35,906 nt of DNA from a virus, in the IMG/VR virus record IMGVR_UViG_3300031539_000142, positions 1 through 35,906 of that record. One strand, given 5' to 3'. Positions 3,157-32,455 of this stretch are shown in pieces (position 1 is the stretch's first letter; every line of letters starts with the position of its first letter). The notes under the pieces were generated by a model. The model worked only from the letters and a program-made list of their open reading frames with translations. It had not been told where the DNA came from and did no database searches. Position numbers and translations under genes: made by a program.

Positions 3157-4656
3157 ATGATAGATAAAATATTAAAGAGGCTCGGCTATTCCAAAATGCG
3201 CCGGAGAAATTTCAGCGGTGCGAATACAGGCAGGCTTTATTCATCCTGGCCCTCAACCAGTTATTCCGCCGATGCTGAATTAAGGAATGATTTACGGGCG
3301 CTGCGGGCCAGGAGCCGGGAACTTGCCAATAATAATGATTATGCAAAGAAGTTTATCCGTATGGTAAAAACAAATGTTATCGGACAGAATGGGATCCGCC
3401 TGCAGAGCATAGCCAAAACCGATAATAATAAGCCCGATCAATTAGCCAGAATTAAAATCGAGGAGGGATTTGATTCCTGGTCTAAAAAAGGGATCTGCGA
3501 GATATCCGGAAAGTATTCATTCCGTGATGTCCAGAACCTGGTGATGGGTTCCACGGCCAGGGACGGTGAAGTTCTGGTGCGTTTTATTCGGAAAGTAGAT
3601 AACGATTTTGGATTCGCTCTTCAGCTTTTAGAAGCCGATCATTTGGATGACAGATATAATGACACCAGACCAAATGGAAATAAGGTTAAGATGGGTATCG
3701 AATATAATGAATGGAACCGGCCGGTAAGATACTGGATCCATCCGAGTCATCCTGGCGATTTGTTTTTTACCCAATCCTATGGCGAGAGGATTCCTGTTGA
3801 TGCCAATGATATGCTTCATATTTTCCTTCCCATCCGGATCAGCCAGGGAAGGGGAATACCCTGGATGCATGCCGCCCTTACCCGTCTGAATATGATCGGC
3901 GCCTATGAAGAAGCAGAACTGGTTGCAGCGCGAATGGGAGCTGCAAAAAACGGTTTTTATTATTATGAAAAAGGAGAAGGGGAAGGTGAATATCCCGGAG
4001 ATGATACGACGGAAGAGGGTGGCCAAGGTAGCCCGATCCAGGAGGCGGAAGCTGGTCATTATGAGTTATTGCCCTATGGTCTGAGATTTAAAGAAAATGA
4101 TCCTCAGCATCCGACAACAGCTTATAAGGATTTTATTAAGGCGCTACTCCGGGGAATCGCCTCCGGGGTAGATGTCAGTTATAATTTTTTGTCCAATGAT
4201 TTAGAGGGTGTCAATTATTCCAGCATTCGAGCCGGTGTCCTGGATGAAAGGGATGTTTGGCGGGATATCCAGGCCTGGATATCAGAACATTTTCACCAGG
4301 TTGTTTTCGAAAAATGGCTGGAGATGGCAATATTGACCGGCGCCGTGAAACTTACTTTCAGGGATTTCGATCGCTGGATCCAGACCAGATGGCAGCCGCG
4401 GGGATGGCAGTGGGTTGATCCCCTAAAAGATTCCATGTCAACCATTAACGAAATAAAGGCCGGATTAAAAACCGGTTCGATGGCAGCTGCCGAGAAGGGC
4501 TTAGATCTTGAAGAGACTTATCAGCAATTATCTTATGAGGAAGAGCTGCGAAAAAAGTATGGTATTAAAGTCAGTTATGATCTGGATTTATTGGAAACAC
4601 TGGCAAAAATACAAGAAACATTGGAAAAAATAGAGGTCCAAAATGAAAAAAATTAA
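3157..4656 (+). CDS. Portal protein (lambda gpB type)
   Basis: This portal subunit of about 499 residues forms the dodecameric ring through which DNA enters the head. The N-terminal 'LRALRARSRELANNNDYAKKFIRMVKTNVIG' region, cut here for length by its key words LRARSREL and NVIG, is the hallmark of lambda-type portals. The later 'SYNFLSNDLEGVNYSSIRAGVLDERD' stretch matches the conserved 'YSSxRAGxLE' motif. ATG 3157 is chosen; TTG 3154 is an alternative with better spacing from GAGG at 3141. The start lies next to a perfect 12-bp palindrome (3142-3153, AGGTAATTACCT) that contains part of the ribosome-binding site. Confidence 0.92.
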   Translation: MIDKILKRLGYSKMRRRNFSGANTGRLYSSWPSTSYSADAELRNDLRALRARSRELANNNDYAKKFIRMVKTNVIGQNGIRLQSIAKTDNNKPDQLARIKIEEGFDSWSKKGICEISGKYSFRDVQNLVMGSTARDGEVLVRFIRKVDNDFGFALQLLEADHLDDRYNDTRPNGNKVKMGIEYNEWNRPVRYWIHPSHPGDLFFTQSYGERIPVDANDMLHIFLPIRISQGRGIPWMHAALTRLNMIGAYEEAELVAARMGAAKNGFYYYEKGEGEGEYPGDDTTEEGGQGSPIQEAEAGHYELLPYGLRFKENDPQHPTTAYKDFIKALLRGIASGVDVSYNFLSNDLEGVNYSSIRAGVLDERDVWRDIQAWISEHFHQVVFEKWLEMAILTGAVKLTFRDFDRWIQTRWQPRGWQWVDPLKDSMSTINEIKAGLKTGSMAAAEKGLDLEETYQQLSYEEELRKKYGIKVSYDLDLLETLAKIQETLEKIEVQNEKN

Positions 4657-6520
4657 AGAACTTGAACTTCCGGTTCAACGGATATATTCCCAGATCAGGA
4701 AAGAAGATATTGACGAGGAAAATCGCATAGTCAATATGACTTTTTCAAGTGAATTCAAAGTTGATAGATGGTGGGGAAAGGAAATATTGGATCATTCTCC
4801 CGGAGCGGTGAGACTGGACCGGCTGCGCACAGCAGGTCCACTCCTGGTAATGCATGAGAGAGCCAAACAGGTGGGCGTGATCGAAGGTGCAGAGATAGGC
4901 TCTGACCGGCGCGGTCATGCTAAAGCACGTTTTGGTAAGTCGTCTTATGCGGAAGAAATCTTTCAGGACGTGAAAGATGGAATCAGGAGAACTACTTCGA
5001 CCGATTACAGAATTCACGAAATGATTCTGGAAAAAAAGAGTGATGAAGGTCTGGATGAATATCGGATAACCGATTGGGAGCCTGTTGAAATTTCCCTTGA
5101 ACCTACGCCCGCCGATATAACGGTAGGAGTGGGCAGATCCGAAGATCCGGAAGGTAAAAAGTATAAAGTTAAAATTATAAACAGGAGGAACTTTGAAATG
5201 ACTGAAGAAGAAAGAAAACAAATCCAGGAAGAAGAGCGCGCAAAAGTGGTCGCAACCGCGGAGGCGGATAAAAAGAAAAAAGATGAAGAAGCCCGGGTAA
5301 AAGCCGATGCGGACAAGGCGATTGAAGATACGCGGAAAACGGAAGCGGAAAGAGCCATCGAAATAATTGCGATCGGTGAGCAATTCAATATGCGCGACGA
5401 AGCCTTAAAAGCGGTCAAAGATGGAACGATCGTCGATAATTTCCGAAAAGTAGCCATGGATAAACTGGTCTCGGAAAAGCACATCGATACGACCATGGGT
5501 ACCATAGGCTTGACCGAAAAAGAGATCAAGAATTACTCTTTTTTCCGTGCCGTCGAGGCGCAAATAAAAAAAGACTGGACCAAGGCGGGATTCGAACGGG
5601 AATGCAGCATTGAACTGGCCAAGAAGTTGGGCAAAGAACCGCGTGGTTTTTATGTTCCCGATGATATTCTGGTACGTTCAGATCTACTTTATGCCAAACG
5701 TACCATTACCAAGACGGGAGCGCCGGGATTGGTCGGTACCGAGCATCTGGCCGGTAGTTTTATCGATTTGCTCCGGACCAGGACCGCCGTCATTGAATTG
5801 GGAGCGCTGACCCTTACAGGATTAGTCGGAGATATCAGCATACCGAAACAGATCGGGGCGGCGACCGGACACTGGATTACCGAAGGAGGCGATACGACCC
5901 CAAGTACACCGGCATTCGGAACACTGGCCATGGGCCCCAAAACAGTGAGTGCGCGTGTGGATATTACCCGGAGAATGCAGATCCAATCCAGCCCGGCCGT
6001 TGAAGCTTTAACACTGACTGATATTGTTAACGTTTTATCCCGGTTGATAGATTTGGCCGCCCTTGCGGGAACCGGGCTTTCCGGCCAGCCGACAGGAATA
6101 TTGAATACATCCGGGATCGGAGATGTTATCGGTGCATCACTTGATTGGGGTGCGATCGTGGAATTTGAAACGGACGTGGCTGAAGCCAATGGTGATGTCG
6201 GTTCGATGGCTTATCTTACCCGGGCATCGGTGAATGGGATTTTAAAAACCAGGGAAAAATCAGCGAACACGGCAGAATTCCTGCAGAAAGATGGAGCGAT
6301 GAACGGATATCCAGTAAAGGTTTCTAACCAGGTACCGGCAGCTACGATGATATTCGGTGTATGGAGCCAGATCCTGATCGGATTCTGGTCCGGGCTTGAT
6401 ATTAAACTGGATGAAGTGACACTCGGCGATTCCGGTGGTCTGGTGGTCCGCGCTTTCCAGGATGCCGATATCGGCGTGCGCCATGCCGCAGCCTATTCGG
6501 CTTCCGATGATATCGATTGA
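4643..6520 (+). CDS. Prohead protease-scaffold-major capsid fusion
   Basis: This 625-residue polyprotein overlaps the portal end by 14 bp. Residues about 10-168 match the HK97-type prohead protease (S78), with His71 in 'VMHERAK', Ser119 in 'TSTDYRI' and Glu149 in 'PVEISLEPTPAD' as likely catalytic or conserved residues. Residues about 186-250 are a charged coiled coil like the delta/scaffold domain. Residues about 295-625 match the HK97-fold capsid protein, including 'GGDTTPSTPAFGTLAMGPKTVSARVDITRRM'-type strand motifs (key words TPAFG, RVDITRR) and a C-terminal 'RAFQDADIGVRH'. An in-frame internal start with a strong ribosome-binding site at codon 186 would give a separate scaffold-capsid product of 440 residues. 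Confidence 0.92.
   Translation: MKKIKELELPVQRIYSQIRKEDIDEENRIVNMTFSSEFKVDRWWGKEILDHSPGAVRLDRLRTAGPLLVMHERAKQVGVIEGAEIGSDRRGHAKARFGKSSYAEEIFQDVKDGIRRTTSTDYRIHEMILEKKSDEGLDEYRITDWEPVEISLEPTPADITVGVGRSEDPEGKKYKVKIINRRNFEMTEEERKQIQEEERAKVVATAEADKKKKDEEARVKADADKAIEDTRKTEAERAIEIIAIGEQFNMRDEALKAVKDGTIVDNFRKVAMDKLVSEKHIDTTMGTIGLTEKEIKNYSFFRAVEAQIKKDWTKAGFERECSIELAKKLGKEPRGFYVPDDILVRSDLLYAKRTITKTGAPGLVGTEHLAGSFIDLLRTRTAVIELGALTLTGLVGDISIPKQIGAATGHWITEGGDTTPSTPAFGTLAMGPKTVSARVDITRRMQIQSSPAVEALTLTDIVNVLSRLIDLAALAGTGLSGQPTGILNTSGIGDVIGASLDWGAIVEFETDVAEANGDVGSMAYLTRASVNGILKTREKSANTAEFLQKDGAMNGYPVKVSNQVPAATMIFGVWSQILIGFWSGLDIKLDEVTLGDSGGLVVRAFQDADIGVRHAAAYSASDDID
5183..5200 (+). promoter_or_regulatory. Internal ribosome-binding site and start in the capsid fusion
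   Basis: AGGAGGAAC (5183-5191) lies 9-10 nt before ATG 5198, which is in frame at codon 186, exactly between the protease and the coiled-coil scaffold. This is among the best Shine-Dalgarno sites in the window. It implies that the capsid is made in excess over the protease by internal initiation, as lambda does with C and Nu3. Confidence 0.8.
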
Positions 6521-6594: not shown

Positions 6595-7128
6595 ATGAAA
6601 TTATTCAAATATTCATTTATTGTTCTGGCTATTCTGCTGATCCTGGCGGGCCAGTCCTTTGCTGGCAGTACCTATTATGATCAAGATGTCAGTGAGATCC
6701 AGAGGCCGGGGAAGCTTCTGTATTATGGGACTGTCACGTTCTCGGACAGCGGAACCGGCACGATTTACTATACCCAGGCATTTTATATCGGCGGTGTCAA
6801 TACGGCTTATGGCCTGGGACGTTTTATATGTTCCGAGGCAGGTGTGGAAGATGTTAATGTATTTGTTGAGTACTCCATGGATGCCGAAACCTGGGTAGCA
6901 GGTACGACAGACACAGATCTCGATGCTGTCGGAACAACTGCTGTAATAGATACTTTTGGTCTCGTTCGGGGAGTTGATCAATTACTTTATTCCACCTGGC
7001 TTTTTATGCGTTATGAGTTTTTGGCCGGGCAGGCTATAGGATCCACGACTTTGACCTGGAGTGTTGCCTTTACAAAACCTTCCGGTCTTGAATATAGGGA
7101 TCTGGCAATAATAAAAGATACACAATAA
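6595..7128 (+). CDS. Exported protein next to capsid, unknown
   Basis: This 177-residue protein is preceded by AGAGGAGG. It starts with a clear Sec signal peptide (residues 1-24, hydrophobic core 'FIVLAILLILAGQ', cleavage near 'SFA-G'). The mature part is rich in Gly, Thr, Tyr and Asp and looks beta-stranded. By position, directly after the major capsid gene, one would expect a decoration or structural protein, and indeed similar positions hold virion proteins in other phages. A signal peptide on such a protein is odd. I do not recognise the family. It is followed by a terminator. Confidence 0.65.
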   Translation: MKLFKYSFIVLAILLILAGQSFAGSTYYDQDVSEIQRPGKLLYYGTVTFSDSGTGTIYYTQAFYIGGVNTAYGLGRFICSEAGVEDVNVFVEYSMDAETWVAGTTDTDLDAVGTTAVIDTFGLVRGVDQLLYSTWLFMRYEFLAGQAIGSTTLTWSVAFTKPSGLEYRDLAIIKDTQ

Positions 7129-7152
7129 AACGGATTCTTATTGATAACTAAA

Positions 7153-7190
7153 AAAAACAGCGCCGGTTTAATTTCCGGCGCTTATTTAAA
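7153..7190 (+). terminator. Rho-independent terminator after head genes
   Basis: A perfect 7-bp GC-rich stem (GCGCCGG 7160-7166, CCGGCGC 7175-7181, loop 8 nt) follows an A-run and is followed by TTATTT. It ends the capsid-proximal transcript, or reduces readthrough into the connector genes. Any open frame running across it is spurious. Confidence 0.8.
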
Positions 7191-7215
7191 ATTAAAAAAT
7201 ATCAAGGAGTTTCAA

Positions 7216-7395
7216 ATGGCTGACAAAAAAATTGATATAACGGTTACCCGCAGATTCAGATATGAAGGCAAGAAAATAGAACCAGGAAAATATCTGACGG
7301 TTGAACGGCATTTTGCCAATGAAATGATCAGTGCTTCCAAGGCTGTTGAAGGGCATGTTAAATTAAAAGATGAACCCAAAAAACCGGCTGCTTAA
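7216..7395 (+). CDS. Small basic structural-module protein, unknown
   Basis: This 59-residue protein starts at ATG 7216, with AAGGAG 8 nt upstream. A longer frame starting at 7141 would translate through the terminator and is rejected. The sequence 'IDITVTRRFRYEGKKIEPGKYLTVERHFANEMISASKAVEG' (key words RFRYEGK, GKYLTVE, ANEM) resembles small head-region proteins in which a beta domain like that of gene-product 'FI' or a neck protein is found between capsid and connector. No firm family is recognised. Confidence 0.6.
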   Translation: MADKKIDITVTRRFRYEGKKIEPGKYLTVERHFANEMISASKAVEGHVKLKDEPKKPAA

Positions 7396-7420
7396 ATAGA
7401 ATTCGAATCTTTAATTTATC

Positions 7421-7741
7421 ATGACTATAAATGAGCAGATTTTAAGTGATCTCGATGCGATTTTTACCGATGGTCTGACAATCGATATTACCCATACTTA
7501 CAACGGCGGTGAGTCCAGTGAAACATTGAAGGCGTTCTTTGACCGATCATATGGAGTGGCTCTGCAGGAGGGTGTGGGAATCGAATCAGCGAGTCTATCG
7601 ATATTAATCAGAACATCAGAGGTAGGAAATATTGATAGAGACAGTGAATTTACAATCCAAGATACTACTTATTATGTCATTGAAAATCAAGGAGATGATC
7701 AGGGTGTGACACGAATATTAATCAGTGAGGACAAGGTCTGA
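7421..7741 (+). CDS. Head-tail connector, lambda FII-like
   Basis: This 106-residue protein is likely a head-tail joining protein of the FII / head-tail adaptor type. It has an N-terminal helix ('INEQILSDLDAIFTDG'), then strand-rich sequence ending in 'DTTYYVIENQGDDQGVTRILISED'. The final 'Y.V..i..D..G...i.L' pattern is characteristic of FII and stopper proteins. It sits in the expected place after the capsid and overlaps the next gene by TGATG. A general 'neck protein' is the safest wording. Confidence 0.65.
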   Translation: MTINEQILSDLDAIFTDGLTIDITHTYNGGESSETLKAFFDRSYGVALQEGVGIESASLSILIRTSEVGNIDRDSEFTIQDTTYYVIENQGDDQGVTRILISEDKV

Positions 7742-8178
7742 TGTCAAAACGGCAAGAAATAATGGATTTGGTTGATGCTAAATTTAAAACAATATCTATT
7801 GCAAAAGGATTTAGTTCTGATTTGGGAAATAATGTATTTGAATTTAGGGATTCACCTATCGCTGATGAAGAATTACCGGCATTGTCATATGGGGATATAT
7901 CTGATGATATTAATGATGAAGAGACGGGAAACCATAATCTTAATCTTGATGTTGAAATTTCTGCCACCGGTTCAACTAGTCCAGCGGCCATGCGTGAAAT
8001 GATACAAGATGTTCTTACTGCGTTTGCGCCGAAGAAAGCTGATTCAGCATTAAGAGCCTTAATTATCGGAGCTGCGTATCTTGGCTCTGATATGTTTATA
8101 GAGCATGAGAAAAAGAAATATATGAAGTCGAGAATAACATTTGAGATTTCATATCAAACAGATGACTGGGATATCTGA
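7741..8178 (+). CDS. Tail terminator / minor tail protein U-like
   Basis: This 145-residue protein has a helix at the N-terminus ('KRQEIMDLVDAKFKTI'), then 'ELPALSYGDISDDIN', a strand with 'NHNLNLDVEISATG', a helix ('SPAAMREMIQDVLTAFAP') and a final strand 'RITFEISYQTDDWD'. This alternation and the closing 'i.~.i.Y.t' pattern match tail terminator proteins (gpU fold). These cap the tail tube and bind the connector. The neighbour upstream is FII-like, in accord with lambda order FII-Z-U, with Z absent here and found at 34714. Confidence 0.65.
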   Translation: MSKRQEIMDLVDAKFKTISIAKGFSSDLGNNVFEFRDSPIADEELPALSYGDISDDINDEETGNHNLNLDVEISATGSTSPAAMREMIQDVLTAFAPKKADSALRALIIGAAYLGSDMFIEHEKKKYMKSRITFEISYQTDDWDI

Positions 8179-8484
8179 ATGAATTTTGATTTTCATTTAT
8201 TACAGTTAATAATAATCATTGTAGTCAATATTGTTTTGGTAACCGGAGCCTACTGGAAATTAAAAAACGATATTAATGAACGGCCGCAATATCAAAAAGT
8301 TGAGGAAATGATTAAAAGAGATACGATAAAAGAAAGAAGAGTGGAAGAGATAGTGAACCGGGATTCATTCCCAAAGGGTGACGGTCAAGTATTGCTTTCT
8401 AAAATGGAGGGTCTTGAGAAGGCATTAAATATTATTTCGGAAAAGTTAGATTCATATTTTAAACCACGAAAGGATATATCATGA
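8179..8484 (+). CDS. Small membrane protein with coiled coil, lysis cassette
   Basis: This 101-residue protein has a single N-terminal transmembrane segment (about residues 5-26, 'LLQLIIIIVVNIVLVTGAYW') followed by a charged helical, probably coiled-coil, tail. It lies directly before a holin-like gene, the endolysin and the spanin, with ATGA overlap to the next gene. It may be a holin regulator, a pinholin-type or antiholin protein, or an extra membrane lysis factor. The family is not recognised. The start has no clear Shine-Dalgarno site and probably depends on coupling to the upstream gene. Confidence 0.6.
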   Translation: MNFDFHLLQLIIIIVVNIVLVTGAYWKLKNDINERPQYQKVEEMIKRDTIKERRVEEIVNRDSFPKGDGQVLLSKMEGLEKALNIISEKLDSYFKPRKDIS

Positions 8485-8663
8485 ATTTTAATTGGAAGTA
8501 TTTTATTTATGACCTGTTTAAGGTCGGGGTACCAATTCTGGTAGGTGCTCTTCTTCCGGAGACAGCTCCCCAGGTTGAAATCATTTCAGTTGCATTGTAT
8601 ATATTCGCCGCTGTCCTGGGCATCGATGCGATAAAGAAAACAGCTGTTTCTTTAAAAAAGTAA
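8481..8663 (+). CDS. Holin candidate
   Basis: This 60-residue protein has two hydrophobic segments, about residues 12-27 ('LFKVGVPILVGALLP') and 33-52 ('VEIISVALYIFAAVLGIDAI'), with a short basic C-terminus ('KKTAVSLKK'). The size, the two segments and the charged tail fit class II holins, which form inner-membrane lesions that release or activate endolysin. It overlaps the preceding membrane gene by ATGA and is separated by 1 nt from the M15 peptidase start. Holins are not conserved in sequence, so the call rests on topology and context. Confidence 0.7.
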   Translation: MNFNWKYFIYDLFKVGVPILVGALLPETAPQVEIISVALYIFAAVLGIDAIKKTAVSLKK

Positions 8664-8664
8664 A

Positions 8665-9120
8665 ATGCAACTGACGGAGAATTTTTTCCTCAAGGAATTT
8701 GTTTTCTCTCCCACGGCGGCCAGAATGGGCGTTGATAACTATCCTGGCCCGCGGGAGATTGCCGCCATCGATGCACTCTGTGACGAAGTTTTGCAGCCAT
8801 TGCGCAACCGGTATGGCAAACCGGTATATATAGTCAGTGGATTTCGCAGTCTGGCGCTGAATTCCATTATACCAGGTGCCGCTAAAAACAGCCAGCATAT
8901 GGACGGGGAAGCGGCAGATCTGGACACGGTCAATGATAATCATATATTATTTGAAATTATAAAGAATGAACTGGGATTCGATCAATTGATCTGGGAACAC
9001 GGAGACGATGAAACACCGGACTGGGTGCATGTTTCATATAAGGCCGACGGTAATAACCGCCGGGAAATATTAAAGGCGTACAGGGATGAATACGGGATGC
9101 ATTATGCTAAAGTTTCTTAA
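8665..9120 (+). CDS. Endolysin, M15 family peptidase
   Basis: This 151-residue protein is a peptidase M15 (D-Ala-D-Ala carboxypeptidase/L-Ala-D-Glu endopeptidase-like) lysozyme. It has the 'SGFRS' motif (58-62) and zinc ligands His78 and Asp85 in 'SQHMDGEAADL' and His122 in 'WVHVSY'. No signal peptide is present, so it would need the holin for release. It cleaves the peptide part of peptidoglycan. It follows the holin candidate and its end overlaps the spanin gene, giving a compact lysis operon. Confidence 0.92.
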   Translation: MQLTENFFLKEFVFSPTAARMGVDNYPGPREIAAIDALCDEVLQPLRNRYGKPVYIVSGFRSLALNSIIPGAAKNSQHMDGEAADLDTVNDNHILFEIIKNELGFDQLIWEHGDDETPDWVHVSYKADGNNRREILKAYRDEYGMHYAKVS

Positions 9121-9571
9121 AATAATATTTTTGATTTTTGTACTGGTTTCATGTACCACGAAAATTATAAAAAAGGATATCGTTACTGAGATCCGCGATG
9201 TGGAGATTGCCTCCGATCACGCCGGCATAAAAGACACAGTGGACTTATCCGATATTTCAAAGGAATGGTATATTAAAGGTTATATTTCCGATTCAACGCC
9301 CGTGAAAATCGAAATCCCCAAACGCATTAATTTGCCTAAAAAGAAGGAAACAATTCAGATCAATAAGAGCACGTCAGTGGGACTGGAAATCTCTACAAGC
9401 ATTGATTCCGGCCAGGTGATTCATGATATCGAGGTTACAAAAGTCGCTTACCAGGAATCGACGGTTACCGAAACGATCGAGATTGATACATCACCTAGTT
9501 ATATAAGATGGATCATTATCATCGTTATAGGATTCCTGGCGGTTTTATTATTTACAATATTGAGAAAATAA
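9104..9571 (+). CDS. Unimolecular spanin-like lipoprotein
   Basis: This 155-residue protein has a lipoprotein signal (residues 1-17, 'LIFVLVSC', lipid-bearing Cys17) and a C-terminal transmembrane segment (about residues 131-152, 'WIIIIVIGFLAVLLF'), with a beta-rich periplasmic middle. A lipobox plus a C-terminal membrane anchor is the architecture of u-spanins such as T1 gp11, which tether the outer and inner membranes and fuse them at lysis. The ATG at 9104 begins the signal sequence, whereas an earlier ATG at 9086 would add residues before it. It overlaps the endolysin gene by 17 bp. Confidence 0.8.
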   Translation: MLKFLKIIFLIFVLVSCTTKIIKKDIVTEIRDVEIASDHAGIKDTVDLSDISKEWYIKGYISDSTPVKIEIPKRINLPKKKETIQINKSTSVGLEISTSIDSGQVIHDIEVTKVAYQESTVTETIEIDTSPSYIRWIIIIVIGFLAVLLFTILRK

Positions 9572-9904
9572 ATGCTGACATTTTATAAATATTTAGACGA
9601 GAGTATCCGGACCAGACTGTTTAAAAAACAGAGCGATGAAACTATATCTATCAAGGCTGATTTTACAAACGCGATCGAATCCGGAGAAGTAATTCTTGCA
9701 ACCAGTATTGTCACTGCCTACGATTCATCGGATATTGATGTGACTTCAACTATTATTTCCGGGGATCCTACAATCTTAAATCCGGCAATCACCATCAAGA
9801 TCCAGGGCGGGGAAGACGGAAAAAAATATAAAATTACATTCCAGGCGATAACGACTGAACATACCTATGAACTGGATATTTTTATGCTAATTAACGACAT
9901 CTAA
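9572..9904 (+). CDS. Tail-fibre adaptor-like beta protein
   Basis: This 110-residue protein has alternating beta strands. The pattern 'SDETISIKADFTNAIESGEVILATSIV' (key words ISIKADF, SGEVI) then '...IKIQGGEDGKKYKITFQAITTEHTYELDI' follows the Ig-like fibre-tail adaptor family, where 'GG.~G..Y.it....T..G......' recurs. It starts immediately after the spanin stop and precedes the tail tube candidate. Its likely role is linking tail fibre to the tail, but the assignment is only by pattern. The overlap with the lysis cassette means co-transcription. Confidence 0.5.
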   Translation: MLTFYKYLDESIRTRLFKKQSDETISIKADFTNAIESGEVILATSIVTAYDSSDIDVTSTIISGDPTILNPAITIKIQGGEDGKKYKITFQAITTEHTYELDIFMLINDI

Positions 9905-9927
9905 CTTATTTTTAAGGAGTATTAATT

Positions 9928-10401
9928 ATGGATCGCGATTTAACAAAAATTTTAAAAAGACATTACCGGGTGCTTCACCGGACACCGGAAGCCTATACCC
10001 AGCCTCCCGATGCGGCCACCTTTGCCACATTTTTGGCCACATTCACCGAACTGGGTTATTGCCGGGATAAGACGATTAAATTAACTATGGTCTCGACGGA
10101 AGAGGAACCATTGGATGACGGAAAGAAAAAACACATGGGTTGGAATGGACATATAGAAGGTATTTTACTTCAATCTGCTGCAGAAGATTTTACGGCCTAT
10201 GAAGCGATCGAGAATATCGAACAGGATTTATTTTTCTATTCTGAAGTTTCCGGTATGTGTATTTTTCTGCCGAATGCCATTCTGATATTTAACGAGTCTG
10301 TTTCTTCCGGTGATACTGAAACGGTGCCTTTTGAATATGATGCTGAAAATCTGGCCACAAAAGCGGCATTCAGAGACAGATTCGAAGAGCCGCTTACCTA
10401 A
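9928..10401 (+). CDS. Major tail tube protein candidate
   Basis: This 157-residue protein follows a good AAGGAG site. It has 'FTELGYCRDKTIKLTMVSTEEEPLDDGKK', then 'GWNGHIEGILLQSAAEDFTAYEAIENIEQ' and ends 'TVPFEYDAENLATKAAFRDRF' (these runs are given by their key words ELGY, GHIEGILLQ, FEYDAEN). This is the kind of strand order seen in tail tube proteins, where a first strand gives 'G.~.d.ti.l', the second 'G....leg.l..' and the C-terminal strand 'ip......e'. It is in the late gene block. No specific family is certain; a neck or tail completion protein is possible. Confidence 0.5.
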   Translation: MDRDLTKILKRHYRVLHRTPEAYTQPPDAATFATFLATFTELGYCRDKTIKLTMVSTEEEPLDDGKKKHMGWNGHIEGILLQSAAEDFTAYEAIENIEQDLFFYSEVSGMCIFLPNAILIFNESVSSGDTETVPFEYDAENLATKAAFRDRFEEPLT

Positions 10402-10415
10402 CGGGGCGGTCTCTT

Positions 10416-10715
10416 GTGAGTATTAAAACAAATTTCATCCGTTTGCGCCGGAAATCCGATGATGTAAAACTGTCCGGTTTGTCCGCTTCTCTGCTTCCTG
10501 AGGGCGGATCCGCTCCGGGGGATCTTATTTCACTGGTACAAAATTCCGGTATAAACTGGCAGTATGACTTTCCGGGGCAGGTCACAAACGGAACTTATAT
10601 TTTGTATGTGAACGGAGTGCCGGTTTTAAACGATGGTGAACCGCAGGAAGTGAGGATAATCCGCAACGGGATTATCAGTGCCGGCGATACGGATTTTGCA
10701 AAGGATTCATGGTAA
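10416..10715 (+). CDS. Small protein before tailspike, unknown
   Basis: This 99-residue protein uses a GTG start (10416) and is followed 1 nt after its stop by the tailspike gene. The sequence is Ser, Gly and Asn rich with beta strands ('GTYILYVNGVPVLNDGEPQEVRII') and looks like a small structural domain, perhaps a fibre or tailspike attachment module. I do not recognise the family. Codon use resembles that of its neighbours. Confidence 0.55.
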   Translation: MSIKTNFIRLRRKSDDVKLSGLSASLLPEGGSAPGDLISLVQNSGINWQYDFPGQVTNGTYILYVNGVPVLNDGEPQEVRIIRNGIISAGDTDFAKDSW

Positions 10716-10716
10716 T

Positions 10717-13074
10717 ATGAGAATCATAATTATCACATTATTTCTTTTAATCTCTTCGATCTTAAATGCCCAGCCTTATCGGCTTCGCCTGGATTCGCTC
10801 AAAATTGATTATAAACTTTATTTAGATGGTATTGACAGGATGCCGTTTTTTGAAGGTTTGGGCGATTCCAATCTGGTGCACTGGAATCAGTTATCAGATG
10901 CGGTTAAACAGCAATTGGGAGCGGGGACAGTTTATAATGCGCCGGATGATTTGACGTTGGAATTAAAGATTGAGGGTTCTGATACCACCATTGGGATTAA
11001 AGATGAAGGTGTTTTCGGATCGGCTTTTTCCCAGTCTGCCATTGATACGATAATGAAATATGGTGGTGATTCTATTTCGGTAGTTAATGATACAATTGCT
11101 TTACAAGAAAAAGATCTGGGCGTGGGTGGAAGATGTTTCTTAAAACAATTATCAACTGGTAATAAGTCTGGCGCAGGAATGCTTGTAGGCATCGATTCCT
11201 CGGATTTTGGTATTGAACCAAATAGCATCGTTATTTTTGATAATCCGAATACGGATGTTATCTGGGTCAGAGATGAATTCCTGCAATTTGGGATAATCAA
11301 TGTCCTGGCTGCCGGGGCAAAGGGGGACAGTATTAATGATGATACCCAGTCCATACAGGCCTGCATGGATCTTGCCCGCGACCTTCAGATTGATATTACG
11401 GATAATTATACAGGGTTTGCTTCCGATCGCCGCGTAATCAGATCTCCTAAAATAATTATTCCATTCGGTAAAAAGGGGAAATACAGAATAACATCTCCGA
11501 TTACGATTTATAACGGCCAGGATATCGAATTCCAGAAAAGCGCTTTGGTTGCCGGCACCCAGGGAATGGTCATGGTCACAACCTTACATACGTCTGCAGG
11601 GAACCCGGTCGCGACTTATGGGACGCGAAATCTCCGGGTTAAAGACATGATTTTATTCGGGAACGGCCTCGCTGAAAAGGGATTGTTCCTCAGGAATACC
11701 GGGGATGGAAGTACAATATCAAACCTGGCGGTTTACGGGGTTAAAGGAAAGACGTTCGCCGATGGAACCAGGGAATGCGATATCCCGGATCTCTCCTCTA
11801 ATACAATTATAGTAGATAATGCGACCGGGCTTTTGCCTAACCAAATTATAGAGATAGAAAACTACAGCGGCTTTTTTGTGATCGAGACAATCTCCGGAAC
11901 TACTGTAACCTTAAACAGGAATATAAGCGCATCTGGAGGAGTTGGAAATGTTTCAGAATTTTATTCGAGGCCGACCGGTCTACAGATCGGGCGGTGTATA
12001 GGGCTGAATATTTTCTCGCCTGAGGTCCGGTTAAATACCCTGGGGGTATATGTCGGCGATGACTCGACGGTCGGAAGATCCGCAAAGGTTCAGTTTTATG
12101 GCGCCTTTATTGAAGATAACGATTACGGGCTTTTACTCGACCGGGCGGATGCCTGTAGTTTTTACGGCCCGCTGGTTCAGCACTCGCGCCGGGGCTGGGA
12201 TATTTGCATCACGAACGGGACCTGGAACAATGATTTTTATAGCCTTTATTGCGAAAGTATAAATTCAGACACGCTCGATACATACGGGACCAGAACCTTT
12301 CCGGTTATAGATATATTATGGAATTCTTTCGGGACTTCATTTCACAACCTCAGATACCCGCAAAATCCGTCTGCAGTCGGATGGCGCCGTCTTATGAGAA
12401 ATTACGGGGAAAACACTTTCGTCAGTGGGCTAAAAGTTACGGACGACGATTTAATCGAGAATCCCAGCGCGGATAATGATTATGCTCTAATCGAACAGAA
12501 CCAATCGAATGGCACTATCACGGTCCAATCATCATCCGGGTCCGCGAATATTCACAACCCATATTTATATGTTGTCGGGTCTGACGGATCTTACCCGAAC
12601 GATCGGGCGTCTGTCTCTTTTCAATGGGCAAACGGACAAAGATTAAGCGGGAGATATAATTTTTATAGCGATACCGGGAGCGACCCTTTACTTTCTTTTT
12701 ATAAGAGCGATACGACCTGGACCTCGACAGCGGCTCGGCTCTATCTGGCGATCAATGGTCTGCACCTGGGACATGACGACATTAGCTTTGCGAGTACGAG
12801 AATTTATAGCGACGCGACGAATCGTGTAAGGCTGGAAACCGGGGACACTTTTTATATAAATACCTCCTGGGATGGCGGTCAATTAAGGCTTGATTCCTGG
12901 CGAATGTGGGAAGATGAAGCCGGTTATTTACGGGCGGTCGGGACCGGAGATCCGGCCAGTGACAGCGATGGATATGAATTCTTTTTAGGCGATTCAATAA
13001 GATCAGATGCCGACTCTGTATATATTTATATTCACGGAAAGTATAGCGCATTAGAATTGAAGGCAATACCATGA
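10717..13074 (+). CDS. Pectate-lyase-like beta-helix tailspike with signal peptide
   Basis: This 785-residue protein begins with a Sec signal peptide ('IIIITLFLLISSILNAQ', cleavage after residue about 19). The motif 'NVLAAGAKGDSINDDTQSIQAC' (key words GAKGD, NDDTQSIQA, about residues 194-216) is the entry motif of pectate-lyase-3 beta-helix proteins, as in phage tailspikes and depolymerases. The middle (about 230-560) is a right-handed parallel beta helix by its repeated strand-turn pattern, and the C-terminus is beta rich and may trimerise. Likely role: binding and degrading a host surface polysaccharide. The signal peptide is unexpected for a virion protein. An in-frame start at 10678 would precede the signal and is rejected. 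Confidence 0.75.
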   Translation: MRIIIITLFLLISSILNAQPYRLRLDSLKIDYKLYLDGIDRMPFFEGLGDSNLVHWNQLSDAVKQQLGAGTVYNAPDDLTLELKIEGSDTTIGIKDEGVFGSAFSQSAIDTIMKYGGDSISVVNDTIALQEKDLGVGGRCFLKQLSTGNKSGAGMLVGIDSSDFGIEPNSIVIFDNPNTDVIWVRDEFLQFGIINVLAAGAKGDSINDDTQSIQACMDLARDLQIDITDNYTGFASDRRVIRSPKIIIPFGKKGKYRITSPITIYNGQDIEFQKSALVAGTQGMVMVTTLHTSAGNPVATYGTRNLRVKDMILFGNGLAEKGLFLRNTGDGSTISNLAVYGVKGKTFADGTRECDIPDLSSNTIIVDNATGLLPNQIIEIENYSGFFVIETISGTTVTLNRNISASGGVGNVSEFYSRPTGLQIGRCIGLNIFSPEVRLNTLGVYVGDDSTVGRSAKVQFYGAFIEDNDYGLLLDRADACSFYGPLVQHSRRGWDICITNGTWNNDFYSLYCESINSDTLDTYGTRTFPVIDILWNSFGTSFHNLRYPQNPSAVGWRRLMRNYGENTFVSGLKVTDDDLIENPSADNDYALIEQNQSNGTITVQSSSGSANIHNPYLYVVGSDGSYPNDRASVSFQWANGQRLSGRYNFYSDTGSDPLLSFYKSDTTWTSTAARLYLAINGLHLGHDDISFASTRIYSDATNRVRLETGDTFYINTSWDGGQLRLDSWRMWEDEAGYLRAVGTGDPASDSDGYEFFLGDSIRSDADSVYIYIHGKYSALELKAIP

Positions 13075-13298
13075 ACAGGTTCTTTTATGATCTAACAAAA
13101 AGAAACTGGGGATTACCCTGGCATATTATAATAGCATGGGGAATTACTGATATAGCAATGATTTGGGTGCATTGGTTCTGGATTTTATTTGGCATTACTC
13201 TCATCGGTTTTGCTTATGAAAGATATCAAGATTCAACTGGTACAGTTGAGGATATGGTAGCAAATACTGTTGGATTTATCTTTGGGGTACTGTTATGA
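13071..13298 (+). CDS. Small membrane protein, unknown
   Basis: This 75-residue protein has two hydrophobic segments (about residues 16-34 and 36-51) with many Trp residues in 'WGLPWHIIIAWGITDIAMIWVHWFW' (key words WHIIIAW, WVHWFW), a charged loop, and a hydrophobic C-terminus ('TVGFIFGVLL'). It overlaps both neighbours by ATGA, so it is co-translated. It could be a second holin-like protein or a membrane factor for the exported fibre genes on both sides. No family is recognised. DNA from here to about 14850 is more AT-rich than the preceding gene, which may mark a later-acquired cassette. Confidence 0.6.
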   Translation: MNRFFYDLTKRNWGLPWHIIIAWGITDIAMIWVHWFWILFGITLIGFAYERYQDSTGTVEDMVANTVGFIFGVLL

Positions 13299-14494
13299 AA
13301 TATTTAATAGAAATTATGTCTATACTATTGTTATTGTTCATATCAACATTGTTTATTGGCACAGATTATTACGTTGATAAGAATAAAGGTTCTGATGCTG
13401 CCAATGGTTTAACCCCTGCAACGGCATGGGAGACTATATCAAAAGTAAATTCCGTAACATTTGATCCTGGAGATGTTGTACATTTTCGTACCGGAAATAT
13501 ATGGAGAGAAACACTAACAGTTCCCTCAAGTGGTATTCCAATAGAAGCTCTAATTTTTGAATTAGATGTTATATCTACTCAGACGATTGACGGTGCTTTT
13601 CAGACATCATCAACATCAGATACAGTCTATGTCTATTGGGGCGATGGAACATCCGGCAAATATGTAGGAACAACAGATCAGGCGTATTCCAAAAATTACG
13701 GCAGCCCAGGAAACAGAAAAGTTAAGATATACGCGGATGATGAATCTGTATTGACGAAATATACTATGGCAACGGTGGGTGCCAACGTACAATTTGCATT
13801 GTCAGATTTGCCATCTGGCTTGACTTCTTTTTATTGTGCTGGATCAAATACTGTGTCTGGGGCATTGTCAGATTTGCCATCAGGATTAACTTATTTTTTT
13901 TGTCTTGGGTCAAATACTGTGTCTGGGGCATTGTCAGATTTGCCATCTGGCTTGACTTCTTTTTATTGTGCTGGATCAAATACTGTGTCTGGGGCATTAT
14001 CTGATTTATCATCTGACGTAATTTATTTTAAATGTTATGGATCGAATACTCTTTCGGGTACGTTGTCAGATTTGCCATCTGTCTTGACTGTTTTTTATTG
14101 TGCCGGATTAAATACTGTGTCTGGAGCATTGTCAGATTTGCCATCAGGATTAACTTATTTTTTTTGTCTTGGGTCAAATACTGTATCTGGAACGTTATCA
14201 GATTTGCCATCTGACGTAATTTATTTTTATTGTGCCGGATCAAATACTATAAGTGATTTTACACCGCCGCACACATGGGCAAATAATTTTAATATGATGA
14301 ATTCTAGTCCCGCTCTCGAATCGGGATTATCTTCATCAGAAGTAGATGATTTGCTTATTTCACTTGCGGCAGCAACCTGGGGTGGGAGTTCAAGGTCTTG
14401 TTGGCTTGCCGGAAATAATGCGGCAAGAACGGCTGCCAGTGATGATGCAGTTTCAACGCTTCAAGGTAAATCAGTTAACGTCACAACAAATTAA
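13295..14494 (+). CDS. Exported repeat protein, beta-helix N-terminus and LRR-like repeats
   Basis: This 399-residue protein has a hydrophobic N-terminus (residues 1-22) typical of export. Its next part, 'YYVDKNKGSDAANGLTPATAW' (key words YYVDK, GSDAANG), is the classic opening of secreted right-handed beta-helix proteins. Residues 168-321 are seven 22-residue repeats of the type 'ALSDLPSGLTSFYCAGSNTVSG'. The pattern L..LPSGLT.f.c.gsntvsG resembles leucine-rich repeats of the kind that form curved solenoids. Cys recurs at a fixed position in each repeat. The C-terminal part (about 325-399) is non-repetitive. The likely function is ligand binding on a surface, but whether the protein is in the virion is unknown. 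Confidence 0.75.
   Translation: MKYLIEIMSILLLLFISTLFIGTDYYVDKNKGSDAANGLTPATAWETISKVNSVTFDPGDVVHFRTGNIWRETLTVPSSGIPIEALIFELDVISTQTIDGAFQTSSTSDTVYVYWGDGTSGKYVGTTDQAYSKNYGSPGNRKVKIYADDESVLTKYTMATVGANVQFALSDLPSGLTSFYCAGSNTVSGALSDLPSGLTYFFCLGSNTVSGALSDLPSGLTSFYCAGSNTVSGALSDLSSDVIYFKCYGSNTLSGTLSDLPSVLTVFYCAGLNTVSGALSDLPSGLTYFFCLGSNTVSGTLSDLPSDVIYFYCAGSNTISDFTPPHTWANNFNMMNSSPALESGLSSSEVDDLLISLAAATWGGSSRSCWLAGNNAARTAASDDAVSTLQGKSVNVTTN
13796..14257 (+). repeat. Seven tandem 66-bp repeats inside the LRR-like gene
   Basis: Units begin at 13796, 13862, 13928, 13994, 14060, 14126 and 14192, each 66 bp (22 codons). Units 1 and 3 are identical, and units 2 and 6 differ only near the end, which shows recent duplication in blocks. 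Units 4, 5 and 7 are more diverged. The exact in-frame period means copy number can change without breaking the gene. Antisense open frames through this block are a by-product of the repeat. Confidence 0.95.
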
Positions 14495-14508
14495 TCGGAG
14501 TGTTAGAG

Positions 14509-14850
14509 ATGAAAATATTATTTTTATTACTTTTTTCCTTTTCTCTTTGTTACGCACAAAACACAACAGATAGAGAAGATGAATTTAAGGCAAAAAACTG
14601 CAAACAGGTAACCAAGGCAGACATTAAGGTCAATGTAATTTCAGGAAAAGCACGTGTTATATGGGATAAATACGGCAATATTACTTATCGGCATGAAACA
14701 TACAAGGGCGATGTATCAATGACATATCCGGGCTTATTTAATTTTTTTGCTGATTATGATACTAAGATAAAAGCAGATTCAGCAATAACCAAATTAAATC
14801 TTAAGGATAAAACAAATGAATATAAATTAACCGGGGATGTAAATAGATGA
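14509..14850 (+). CDS. Exported protein, unknown
   Basis: This 113-residue protein starts at ATG 14509, 8 nt after CGGAG. Residues 1-18 are a Sec signal ('ILFLLLFSFSLCYAQ', cleavage after 'CYA'). The mature part is polar with several beta strands. 'ITYRHETYKGDVSMTYPGLFNFFADYDTKIKADSA' (key words KGDVSMTY, FFADYDTKIKAD) is a little like LPS-transport OstA-type strand repeats, but I would not assign this. It overlaps the next gene by ATGA. Function unknown. Confidence 0.6.
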   Translation: MKILFLLLFSFSLCYAQNTTDREDEFKAKNCKQVTKADIKVNVISGKARVIWDKYGNITYRHETYKGDVSMTYPGLFNFFADYDTKIKADSAITKLNLKDKTNEYKLTGDVNR

Positions 14851-15662
14851 AGAAAATATTATTTATTTTGTTATTATTGTCTTCTCCAAATTTGAACAGT
14901 GCAGGGCTTCCGATTACATTCAGCGTATATGATTCGGCTACGGGGCTGACAGGGACGGACGCATCAGGAGCAAAGCCGATTATAGACTCTACCGGAACAG
15001 CAATTGATTTTAATGGTAAAAGTTATATCACTCTGGAAAAGATCGAGATAAGAAATGGGTTGACTAAACTTAATCTTGGCATAAATAATATAATAAGATA
15101 CTGCAAATTCGACAGCGCAGATGCAAACGCACTTCTTTTAGATGGGAAAACCAATTCCGTATATTATAATTTATTCTTAAATGGCACTACTGATGCGATA
15201 GAAGTTGATTCATCGGCGAATACAATTTATAATAATGTTATTTACGCAAATGGAAACGGATTTGACGTGGATGCTGCTGTGACTATTAAGAATAACATTG
15301 TAAATACATCGGGGACAAATGATATAAATATTGCAGCCGGAGTAACGGTGACAGGTGGCTATAATGTTTATGAAGATGCCGCAAAAGCAGGAGACGGTAC
15401 GTATTCTGGCACTTCATTGTGGGCGGCTGATCCCCTATTCACCAATGCAGCCGGGGGTGATTTCACATTGACTGCATTGTCACCTTGTATAAATGCAGGT
15501 ACTGGTGTTGGATTGGTATTAGATTACATTGGCATCACAGTACCATCACCGACAGGGACTAACCCGGATATCGGAGCGTATGAATATAGTCAGTCGGCAG
15601 GAACAATTATAAAAAATTACTGGCCAATCTGGCCAATCTGGCCGGTTTACCCGGAACATTAA
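14847..15662 (+). CDS. Exported beta-helix protein, choice-of-anchor Q type
   Basis: This 271-residue protein has a Sec signal (residues 1-19, cleaved near 'NSA'), then parallel beta-helix coils ('NIIRYCKFDSADANALLLDG', 'NTIYNNVIYANGNGFDVD', 'VTIKNNIVN'). The C-terminal part 'DPLFTNAAGGDFTLTALSPC' followed by 'INAGTG' and 'DIGAYEY' is the signature of secreted choice-of-anchor Q proteins of Bacteroidota-like bacteria. The protein ends in a Trp-Pro repeat ('YWPIWPIWPVYPEH'), encoded by a 9-bp tandem repeat TGGCCAATC at 15621-15638. Likely a carbohydrate-binding or tailspike-like factor captured from a host gene. Confidence 0.75.
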   Translation: MKKILFILLLLSSPNLNSAGLPITFSVYDSATGLTGTDASGAKPIIDSTGTAIDFNGKSYITLEKIEIRNGLTKLNLGINNIIRYCKFDSADANALLLDGKTNSVYYNLFLNGTTDAIEVDSSANTIYNNVIYANGNGFDVDAAVTIKNNIVNTSGTNDINIAAGVTVTGGYNVYEDAAKAGDGTYSGTSLWAADPLFTNAAGGDFTLTALSPCINAGTGVGLVLDYIGITVPSPTGTNPDIGAYEYSQSAGTIIKNYWPIWPIWPVYPEH

Positions 15663-15680
15663 ATTAAGGAGAAATAGATA

Positions 15681-16136
15681 ATGAAGAAATTTTTAATATT
15701 ATTTTTAATCTTAATCCCGCTCTGCCTGCCGGCCCAGATCTATGACCGGGGTATATTCGGGACCGAATCCGTAATCCTCGATCTGGATACCTGCGCAGTC
15801 TCTGACGACAGTTTAACTTCCCGGATAGTCAACTGGCCACAATGGCGTTCGATGCGCGGTACGCTCAAGATCTGGGGCGAAATGTGGGTATTATCGGGCA
15901 AGGTTCGGACATTCACGGTCAATTTAAAACCTTTGCATGATTATGATACAAGTGAACTGGGGATTTCCAGGGAACTGGGCACGATTACCGTCACCGATTC
16001 GGTAAAATATGAATTCAGTGTGGGAAATATCGGCGCCGGTGACTGGTGGGATATTATAAAGGGTTACCAGGTAAATTTCGTTCCTGATTCAACTACTTCA
16101 GGGGTAAAAATTAAGGGGAGGGAGCTGGCAAAATGA
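15681..16136 (+). CDS. Exported protein, unknown
   Basis: This 151-residue protein follows AAGGAG and begins with a Sec signal (residues 1-19, 'ILFLILIPLCLPAQ'). The mature part has a beta-rich pattern such as 'WPQWRSMRGTLKIWGEMWVLSGKVRTFTVNLK' (key words TLKIWGEMWVL, RTFTVNLK). It is probably a compact beta sandwich. It closes the run of exported proteins before the tail chaperones. The closing 'SGVKIKGRELAK' overlaps the next gene by ATGA. No family is recognised. Confidence 0.6.
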   Translation: MKKFLILFLILIPLCLPAQIYDRGIFGTESVILDLDTCAVSDDSLTSRIVNWPQWRSMRGTLKIWGEMWVLSGKVRTFTVNLKPLHDYDTSELGISRELGTITVTDSVKYEFSVGNIGAGDWWDIIKGYQVNFVPDSTTSGVKIKGRELAK

Positions 16137-16342
16137 ACTTAGAGAATAAACGTAAATTCTATATCACTGCTTTAAGTCTGATATTTTCGGCTGTATTATC
16201 AGGCATAGTGATCTGGCAGATCCCGGCCGATGCCGTAACTCTGATCGCAGCGATCGGGGCCAATGTCACGGCCGTGAATACACCGTTCATGCTATCCAAT
16301 TACGGAGAGAATAAAGTAAAGGCCCAGAATGGAAAGGTCTGA
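16133..16342 (+). CDS. Two-helix membrane protein, unknown
   Basis: This 69-residue protein has two hydrophobic segments (about residues 9-29 and 33-52, 'ALSLIFSAVLSGIVIWQIP' and 'AVTLIAAIGANVTAVNTPFML'), with a charged C-terminal end. It overlaps genes on both sides by ATGA and 14 bp respectively. Its position between an exported protein and the tail chaperones is not diagnostic. It could be holin-like or an assembly factor. Unknown. Confidence 0.55.
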   Translation: MNLENKRKFYITALSLIFSAVLSGIVIWQIPADAVTLIAAIGANVTAVNTPFMLSNYGENKVKAQNGKV

Positions 16343-16754: not shown

Positions 16755-16927
16755 TACGGGAATCTTTTATTATCGGTGAGGAAGAGGATTTTGAAGGCTG
16801 GCTCAATTTTAAACTGATAGAAGTCAATGCATTGAACGGAGAATTTAATCATAAAAAATCTAAAAAATTGGATAAACTGCCGGTTGTCGAAGTTTATCTC
16901 CGGGCATATTCAAATTTGAAGAGGTAG
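16652..16927 (+). CDS. Frameshift extension of tail chaperone (T-like)
   Basis: This 91-residue frame lies -1 relative to the upstream G-like gene and is best read as the C-terminal extension made by ribosomal frameshift. It begins 'MEQEVRDNIKRISEYLGL', then an acidic and Gly-rich linker ('NSDSDGENGAGGKEG') and a helical domain ending 'LPVVEVYLRAYSNLKR'. In lambda the T part of gpGT binds tail tube subunits. A separate start at 16652 cannot be excluded. The stop lies inside a hairpin (16921-16934). Confidence 0.72.
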   Translation: MEQEVRDNIKRISEYLGLNSDSDGENGAGGKEGIIRESFIIGEEEDFEGWLNFKLIEVNALNGEFNHKKSKKLDKLPVVEVYLRAYSNLKR

Positions 16928-22668: not shown

Positions 22669-23211
22669 TTAATGAGCTTTCGATATTTTTTCATAAAATT
22701 CCCTAAACCCTGGTCTTGCCGTCGTAGGAGCATCAGAGGAAAACTCTCCTTCAACAAATTCTTTATCTAAATCAATTTTAACTAATACCTTTTTACCTTC
22801 GATTAATTGCTTTATAAATTTTTTAGATATTAAATAATCTTTTGAAGACCAACTTGTCGAGGATACATGTGTATATTTATCATAAATTCCTGGATCTATT
22901 TCTATATCAGTAATTTCATCAAATGATTCCATTGAAATAAATTCGCCATCAATATTAAAATGTAATGATTTACCTTTTGAAAAATTACTTATGCCTTTAA
23001 CAATTGCGGTTAATATTACTGAAGAATCAGGCATTTTACTCGAATGGAATAGGCCTAATTTCATAGGACTACTATATAACCATGCCGGTTCCATTTGTAT
23101 CATTCTTGTACCATCAAAATCCGAGACACTTTCAGATACCCAGCCTGGACCCCCAGGTATTGTATAACATGAAAATATAAAAGGAATTATTAAAATAATT
23201 AAAAATTTCAT
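22669..23211 (-). CDS. Prophage-expressed lipoprotein, unknown
   Basis: This 180-residue protein starts with a lipoprotein signal ('LIILIIPFIFSC', Cys15). The mature part is polar and beta rich, ending 'PGFREFYEKISKAH'. It lies 15 bp downstream of the CI-like repressor gene and is probably co-transcribed with it in a lysogen. Such lipoprotein morons can block superinfection by masking receptors, but no similarity to a known exclusion lipoprotein is seen. The region is AT-rich compared with the tail genes. Confidence 0.7.
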   Translation of the reverse strand: MKFLIILIIPFIFSCYTIPGGPGWVSESVSDFDGTRMIQMEPAWLYSSPMKLGLFHSSKMPDSSVILTAIVKGISNFSKGKSLHFNIDGEFISMESFDEITDIEIDPGIYDKYTHVSSTSWSSKDYLISKKFIKQLIEGKKVLVKIDLDKEFVEGEFSSDAPTTARPGFREFYEKISKAH

Positions 23212-32032: not shown

Positions 32033-32455
32033 ATGAAAAATATACTTTTATTATTTGCAATATTGTGGATATTCTTTGATTGCAATTTACAGGCACAAAA
32101 TCATACTTACAAACTGGTATGGGATTATAATACCGATGATATAACCTATGAATATATGATTTTTGTCGCAGAAGTATCCGATACATTACAATCACCATTT
32201 TATGTACCAATTGATTCTTTAAGTAACTGGACTCCATATTTATTTAAAGCCGTTAATCATGATACATTGTTTTCAATGAATCCTGATTCGGCCGTTTTTT
32301 TATATGAAACAATTGAAGATGGGAAATGGCTTTGTGGAAGAATAATTGCCAGAACAATAGGCAGTGTCTATTCAGGTCCTAGTAATCAAGCGTTTTATCA
32401 TAAACCAATGCTATTAAAACCACAAACGCCTGGCGGAGCGAGATGGGAGAGATAA
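32033..32455 (+). CDS. Exported protein, unknown
   Basis: This 140-residue protein has AAAGGAG upstream and a Sec signal (residues 1-23, 'ILLLFAILWIFFDCNLQAQ'). The mature part 'YKLVWDYNTDDITYEYMIFVAE' and 'GRIIARTIGSVYSGPSNQAF' look like an Ig or fibronectin-III-type beta sandwich. It is an exported protein among early genes, a place where surface or superinfection factors are common. No family is certain. Confidence 0.6.
   Translation: MKNILLLFAILWIFFDCNLQAQNHTYKLVWDYNTDDITYEYMIFVAEVSDTLQSPFYVPIDSLSNWTPYLFKAVNHDTLFSMNPDSAVFLYETIEDGKWLCGRIIARTIGSVYSGPSNQAFYHKPMLLKPQTPGGARWER

What the first reader, a model, noticed from the sequence alone, without database searches (positions are those of the whole stretch)
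6595..16136. Dense cluster of Sec-exported proteins in the tail-fibre region
Genes at 6595, 10717, 13295, 14509, 14847 and 15681 all encode clear N-terminal signal peptides, and a seventh is at 32033. Virion proteins normally fold in the cytoplasm. So either these are secreted phage-made proteins (decorating the host surface, degrading or capturing polysaccharide, or acting in biofilms) or the tail parts mature through the periplasm. Two beta-helix proteins and an LRR-like one are among them.
Basis: partly seen in the sequence, partly recalled or inferred. Interest (0 to 1): 0.75.

Follow-up and report, generated by a model that had tools for sequence, protein, structure and literature searches.

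The report
Phage exporting proteins among virion genes
A virus of (probably) Bacteroidota bacteria carries, among the genes for its own particle, a run of genes whose products bear the host's export tag; relatives have put the same kind of tag exactly in front of a protein that normally coats the virus head, so part of what looks like 'virus particle' seems to be sent out of the cell.

Summary
Observation largely confirmed. In a temperate-looking siphophage (an IMG/VR record), five of the seven named proteins have convincing type I Sec signal peptides (6595, 10717, 14509, 14847, 15681). 13295 is weak and 32033 plausible. Clustering exceeds chance: 8/18 genes in the region against 1/45 outside, and 8/63 window genes against 11/711 in capsid-related phages and 12/443 in seven Bacteroidota phages. 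Four of seven predicted mature ends start with Gln, the Bacteroidota 'Q-rule', so the signals look tuned to the host's signal peptidase. P. gingivalis phages are already reported to carry five such genes.

New here: gene 6595 lies in the slot between major capsid protein and head-closure gene where relatives encode a capsid decoration/cement protein. In four relatives a signal peptide is joined exactly before that protein's normal N-terminus, with a new cysteine pair; in two others an unrelated slot protein keeps AEA|Q while its hydrophobic core diverges.

Best reading: late-made proteins exported to the envelope, probably altering surface or receptor. Rivals: attachment to virions after lysis; uncleaved virion proteins; lysogenic cargo. 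Function is inferred. Both structure predictions failed.

The parts
6595..7128 (+). 177 aa, signal peptide MKLFKYSFIVLAILLILAGQSFA|G, then a small beta-rich protein; lies in the capsid-decoration slot between major capsid protein and head-closure gene
   Evidence: no family hit; no detectable homology to phrog_5707 or to L018/L094
10717..13074 (+). 785 aa, signal peptide ...SSILNA|Q, then N-terminal domain and pectate-lyase-type beta-helix (tailspike-like)
   Evidence: no relatives outside the sister contig; no PDB relative
13295..14494 (+). 399 aa, weak signal peptide or signal anchor, beta-helix-type N-terminus, seven 22-aa LRR-like units
14509..14850 (+). 113 aa exported protein, LCYA|QNTT
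   Evidence: and direct reading; no family hit
14847..15662 (+). 271 aa exported beta-helix protein (DUF5123-like), LNSA|GLPI
15681..16136 (+). 151 aa exported small beta-rich protein, LPA|QIYD; good ribosome-binding site AAGGAG
   Evidence: no relatives found
32033..32455 (+). 140 aa, plausible signal peptide (LQA|QNHTY) before a short beta-rich, Fn3-like domain
   Evidence: direct reading; not called by the predictor because of Asp before the site; domain type by eye only
9104..9571 (+). lipoprotein signal (LVSC) plus C-terminal TM segment right after the endolysin: u-spanin architecture
   Evidence: same layout in RAP44, 11b and P12002S
22669..23211 (-). lipoprotein (IFSC) beside the repressor in the leftward block; candidate superinfection-exclusion or lysogenic-conversion gene
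   Evidence: (phrog_7678, E=3.8e-12)
4643..6520 (+). protease-major capsid protein fusion; anchor gene for the synteny
   Evidence: phrog_617, E=7e-141
7421..7741 (+). head closure Hc1; downstream border of the decoration slot
16133..16342 (+). 69 aa small TM protein at the end of the exported cluster

Best explanation
The region holds six late-operon genes (plus 32033) whose products are pre-proteins for the host Sec translocase and signal peptidase I. They are made together with head and tail proteins, exported, cleaved (often leaving N-terminal Gln, which a Bacteroidota-type host would cyclise) and placed in the periplasm, outer membrane or on the surface. There their beta-helix, LRR-like and beta-sandwich domains most likely bind or trim surface polysaccharide or receptor, so that progeny are not captured by the producing cell, its debris or its neighbours. 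Shown from sequence: the signal peptides, their clustering, the Q-rule ends and their recurrence in relatives. Inferred: late expression (from gene order), the host phylum, cleavage in vivo, final location and the surface or receptor function.
For: Signal peptides and clustering above chance. Q at +1 in 4 of 7: P=0.003 at a 10% background, against an expected 71% in Bacteroidota. Lipoprotein-plus-TM spanin next to lysis genes, as in isolated Bacteroidota phages. Orthologous slot proteins in L018 and L094 keep AEA|Q while the signal core differs (11/20 identical in the first 21 residues, 121/150 after) with an in-frame 3-nt indel, as expected of a working cleavable signal. Four relatives carry a signal peptide before a phrog_5707 domain, two cysteines each, against 6 of 48 non-exported homologues with two or more. 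Nearly all differences from the sister contig (9 of 10 over 24 kb) lie in one LRR unit of exported gene 13295, as a recognition surface would show. Precedents: T5 Llp; Q-rule genes in P. gingivalis phages.
Against: No expression, fractionation or virion data. SignalP was not run. The window's own exported proteins have no relatives beyond the sister contig, so selection on their signals could not be measured. Genes 6595 and 10717 occupy positions or fold classes typical of virion parts. No promoter or terminator sets the cluster apart, so expression timing is inferred from gene order only. Enrichment of signal peptides next to the capsid gene across relatives is modest (p=0.016) and includes a few false calls.
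Confidence: 0.5

Rival explanations
1. Post-lysis decoration: the exported proteins are outer virion parts (head decoration 6595, tailspike 10717, others) that fold, and in relatives form a disulphide, in the periplasm, and attach to finished particles when the cell lyses.
For: 6595 sits in the decoration slot. In L113, L115, L117 and L130 the signal peptide is joined exactly before the normal N-terminus of a decoration-type protein, so cleavage restores the usual start (A|EDLYNN against M-RDLxNN), and in L115, L117 and L130 no second decoration gene is seen beside it. The family profile's two best PDB matches are a capsid decoration protein and the BPP-1 cementing protein (E=0.002 and 0.006). 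A cysteine pair is present in exported members.
Against: No known tailed phage does this (own knowledge). Dilution after lysis works against it. 6595 is not detectably homologous to that family. No virion data.
Confidence: 0.2
2. The N-terminal hydrophobic segments are not used for export: virion proteins stay in the cytoplasm, and the segments are cut by the prohead protease or kept as hydrophobic tails.
For: A signal-like N-terminus on major capsid proteins of P. gingivalis Nixviridae phages was explained that way. Phage assembly is cytoplasmic.
Against: AXA sites with Gln at +1 in four unlinked genes; conserved AEA|Q in L018/L094; complete n/h/c structure; two cysteines in exported relatives.
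Confidence: 0.13
3. Lysogenic conversion cargo: the cluster is a set of host-derived secreted genes carried as morons between tail genes (as lambda lom lies among tail genes), serving the lysogen.
For: Temperate markers: repressor and CII-like genes. Lower GC3 in 13295-15662 (0.26-0.34) than in the main virion genes (0.40-0.48). The cluster separates the tail gene from the tail chaperone.
Against: Same strand, overlapping starts (13071/13295, 14847, 16133) and no own promoter or terminator signal point to late co-expression. 6595 and 10717 have the GC3 of the virion genes (0.42, 0.46).
Confidence: 0.14

Closest known systems
Q-rule signal-peptide genes of Porphyromonas gingivalis 'Nixviridae' prophages (PMC10367356)
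   Same: Phage genes of unknown function with type I signal peptides that expose N-terminal Gln in a Bacteroidota host
   Different: Here six such genes cluster among head and tail genes, one in the decoration slot, with beta-helix and LRR domains
Capsid decoration/cement proteins (phrog_5707; PDB 8cjz; BPP-1 cement protein 3j4u)
   Same: Slot directly after the major capsid gene; small beta-rich protein; relatives L113/L115/L117/L130 are true members with a signal peptide
   Different: Known members start at the DLxNN motif without a signal; window 6595 itself has no detectable sequence homology to them
T5 Llp and related superinfection-exclusion lipoproteins (PMC9586334)
   Same: Small phage proteins exported to the envelope to stop adsorption to infected cells and debris
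   Different: Llp is one lipoprotein that jams a TonB-dependent transporter; here several larger SPase I substrates are encoded among virion genes
Lambda lom (own knowledge)
   Same: Exported protein gene lying among tail genes
   Different: Outer-membrane barrel, single gene, unrelated sequence

Membership tests
Bacteroidota Q-rule SPase I substrates | type I signal peptide | tested here: met
   five convincing, one weak (13295), one plausible (32033)
Bacteroidota Q-rule SPase I substrates | Gln directly after the cleavage site | tested here: met
   10717, 14509, 15681, 32033; not 6595, 13295, 14847
Bacteroidota Q-rule SPase I substrates | N-terminal pyroglutamate in the mature protein | not testable with these tools
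   needs mass spectrometry
Capsid decoration protein, phrog_5707 type (window gene 6595) | gene between major capsid protein and head-closure gene | tested here: met
Capsid decoration protein, phrog_5707 type (window gene 6595) | sequence or profile similarity | tested here: not met
   hmmscan, hmmsearch and hhalign gave nothing; not filed as a member
Capsid decoration protein, phrog_5707 type (L113, L115, L117, L130) | profile similarity over the mature chain | tested here: met
   phrog_5707 E=5e-20 to 1e-27 for L113, L115 and L117; L130 near-identical to L115; hhalign exported against non-exported group 95.7%, E=1e-8
Tailspike (10717) | beta-helix domain | tested here: met
   Pect-lyase_RHGA_epim E=1.7e-4, below the curated cut-off
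Tailspike (10717) | presence in the virion as a trimer | not testable with these tools
   AF2 model pLDDT 32, unusable
u-spanin (9104) | lipobox plus C-terminal TM segment next to lysis genes | tested here: met
Llp-type superinfection exclusion (cluster) | blocks adsorption of the same phage | not testable with these tools
   needs a host and an assay

The most novel reading that the evidence does not exclude
Some tailed phages send part of their outer virion (capsid decoration, spikes) through the host Sec pathway, where it folds and is trimmed to its natural N-terminus by the host's signal peptidase, and add it to particles only at lysis: a two-compartment virion.
Probability: 0.18. Interest if true: 0.9.

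Novelty: new variant of a known kind. Interest (0 to 1): 0.58.

Why it matters
Tailed phages are taken to build virions wholly in the cytoplasm, and exported phage proteins are taken to be lysis or exclusion factors. A repeated fusion of a cleavable export signal to a capsid-decoration-type protein, at the exact domain boundary, breaks that division and offers a clear test: find the mature N-terminus and ask whether the protein is on the particle, on the cell, or both. It also gives phage-side use of the Bacteroidota Q-rule outside P. gingivalis.

Tried and rejected
AlphaFold2 of mature 6595 (three sequences, pLDDT 33) and of 10717 (single sequence, pLDDT 32) failed, so no fold search was made. 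Homology of 6595 to the L018/L094 slot protein, to phrog_5707 or to 15681 was sought by BLASTP, hhalign and hmmsearch and not found, so the link is position, size and signal only. Searches for relatives of 6595, 10717, 13295, 15681 and tail gene 19199 in IMG/VR, and of 6595, 10717 and 15681 in INPHARED, gave only the near-identical sister contig. Promoter and terminator scans were at chance level. 'All Bacteroidota phages do this' was rejected: seven isolates show mainly spanins and lipoproteins, and one (P2559S gp16) an exported protein in its structural module. Signal peptides on predictor hits in L005, L148 and L155 are false calls on tail-terminator or decoration starts. Prophage copies of phrog_5707 in 289 class-mates of Chelatococcus and 247 Acidobacteriota genomes (30 genomes with hits) show no convincing signal peptide, and none of 369 gammaproteobacterial genomes has a match (the control genomes did not ring either, so absence is not proven), so exported forms look like the exception.

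Full report
What the window is. The 35,906-base window is a single IMG/VR virus record: a siphophage with small and large terminase, portal, protease-capsid fusion, head closure, tail terminator, a lysis cassette (M15 endolysin), tape measure and tail genes on the + strand, and a short leftward block with a repressor. A CII-like gene suggests a temperate phage. One sister contig (23,957 bases) is identical to window 2-23958 except for ten positions.

Checking the observation. With no SignalP at hand I wrote a rule-based predictor; it found 11 of 12 E. coli control signals. It supports 6595, 10717, 14509, 14847 and 15681 clearly, 13295 weakly, and does not call 32033, which still looks plausible by eye. 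It adds two lipoproteins, 9086 (probable start 9104) and 22669(-). False calls are rare: none in 76 non-gene ORFs and 0.35% of shuffled proteins. The density is unusual against capsid-related phages (11/711), against seven isolated Bacteroidota phages (12/443) and against the rest of the window (1/45 outside, 8/18 inside). Those seven phages were picked by me from memory and are not a random sample.

Are the signals real? Four of the seven predicted cleavage sites leave Gln. In Bacteroidota this 'Q-rule' holds for about 71% of signal peptidase I substrates and it is uncommon elsewhere, with exceptions such as Ignavibacterium album (PMC5837995); window proteins contain 2.9% Gln overall. Later work reports that P. 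gingivalis phages have adopted the rule (PMC10367356, PMC10653852). The lipoprotein-plus-TM gene beside the endolysin matches the layout in Riemerella, Flavobacterium and Polaribacter phages. So the signals look adapted to a Bacteroidota-like host; the host itself was not identified.

The decoration slot. Scans with the capsid protein gave about 130 related contigs. In many, the gene between capsid protein and head closure encodes a small beta-rich protein. One group belongs to phrog_5707; an 18-member profile has as its two best PDB matches a capsid decoration protein (8cjz, E=0.0022) and the BPP-1 cementing protein (3j4u, E=0.0058), weak but consistent with each other and with the position. 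Most members start at a DLxNN motif two to five residues from the N-terminus. In L113, L115, L117 and L130 a full signal peptide stands directly before that motif (A|EDLYNN, A|GDLYNN), each has two cysteines in the mature chain, and the exported and plain groups align over 134 columns at 95.7% probability. The four are at most two or three independent lineages, so the cysteine count (p=8e-4) overstates the case. In L018 and L094 an unrelated slot protein has a signal whose core differs (11/20) but whose site AEA|Q and mature chain (121/150) are kept, with an in-frame indel. Window 6595 is a third type in the same slot. Contigs L115 and L144 have further exported small proteins between terminase and portal. 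Across all relatives, signal peptides near the capsid gene are enriched only modestly (p=0.016, with false calls), so the argument rests on these specific cases.

The cluster 10717-16136. It lies between tail gene 9928 and a probable tail chaperone (16329), on the same strand with overlapping starts, and has no convincing promoter or terminator of its own. It includes a tailspike-like beta-helix protein (10717), an LRR-like protein (13295), a DUF5123 beta-helix protein (14847) and two small proteins. Nine of the ten differences between window and sister contig fall within 24 bases of one LRR unit; in the window that unit is an exact copy of the first unit, and the sister's version occurs nowhere else in the window. 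This is either repeat exchange in a recognition surface or an assembly collapse of a repeat.

Interpretation. The most economical reading is export of late-made proteins to the envelope or surface, with recognition-type folds acting on receptor or polysaccharide. T5 Llp shows that phages gain by switching receptors off in the producing cell and its debris (PMC9586334). The decoration-slot fusions leave open a stronger reading, that outer virion parts travel through the periplasm and join particles at lysis. I give the first about 0.5 and the second about 0.2. What is shown is signal peptides, clustering, host-type cleavage sites and recurrence; function and location are inferred.

Limits. Both structure predictions failed. 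The window's own exported proteins have no useful relatives. No proteomics exists for this phage.

Noticed in passing
13964-13987 (gene 13295): 9 of the 10 differences from the 24-kb sister contig fall in one 66-bp LRR unit (FYCAGSNTVSG to FECTGTNTISG); window unit 3 is an exact copy of unit 1. Repeat exchange or assembly collapse.
   Followed up: partly
22669-23211 (-): Lipoprotein of phrog_7678 in the leftward block beside the repressor; candidate superinfection-exclusion or lysogenic-conversion gene.
   Followed up: partly
9104-9571: u-spanin architecture (lipobox plus C-terminal TM) after the endolysin, as in Riemerella RAP44, Flavobacterium 11b and Polaribacter P12002S phages.
   Followed up: partly
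16329-16927: Overlapping ORFs 16329-16754 and 16652-16927 just before the tape measure look like a tail-chaperone frameshift pair.
   Followed up: no
L115 2752-3639, L144 1445-1888: Further small signal-peptide proteins between terminase and portal in high-GC relatives, each with two cysteines in the mature chain.
   Followed up: partly
9572-9904: Gp77-type fibre-tail adaptor domain (PF23148, E=1.5e-8) close upstream of the tailspike-like gene.
   Followed up: no
34714-35217: Tail completion/Neck1 gene (phrog_27) lies near the right end of the record, far from the other connector genes and next to terminase if the genome is circular.
   Followed up: no
L090 12432-12935: Croceibacter phage P2559S gp16 has a type I signal peptide inside the structural module of an isolated phage; a ready test case.
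   Followed up: partly
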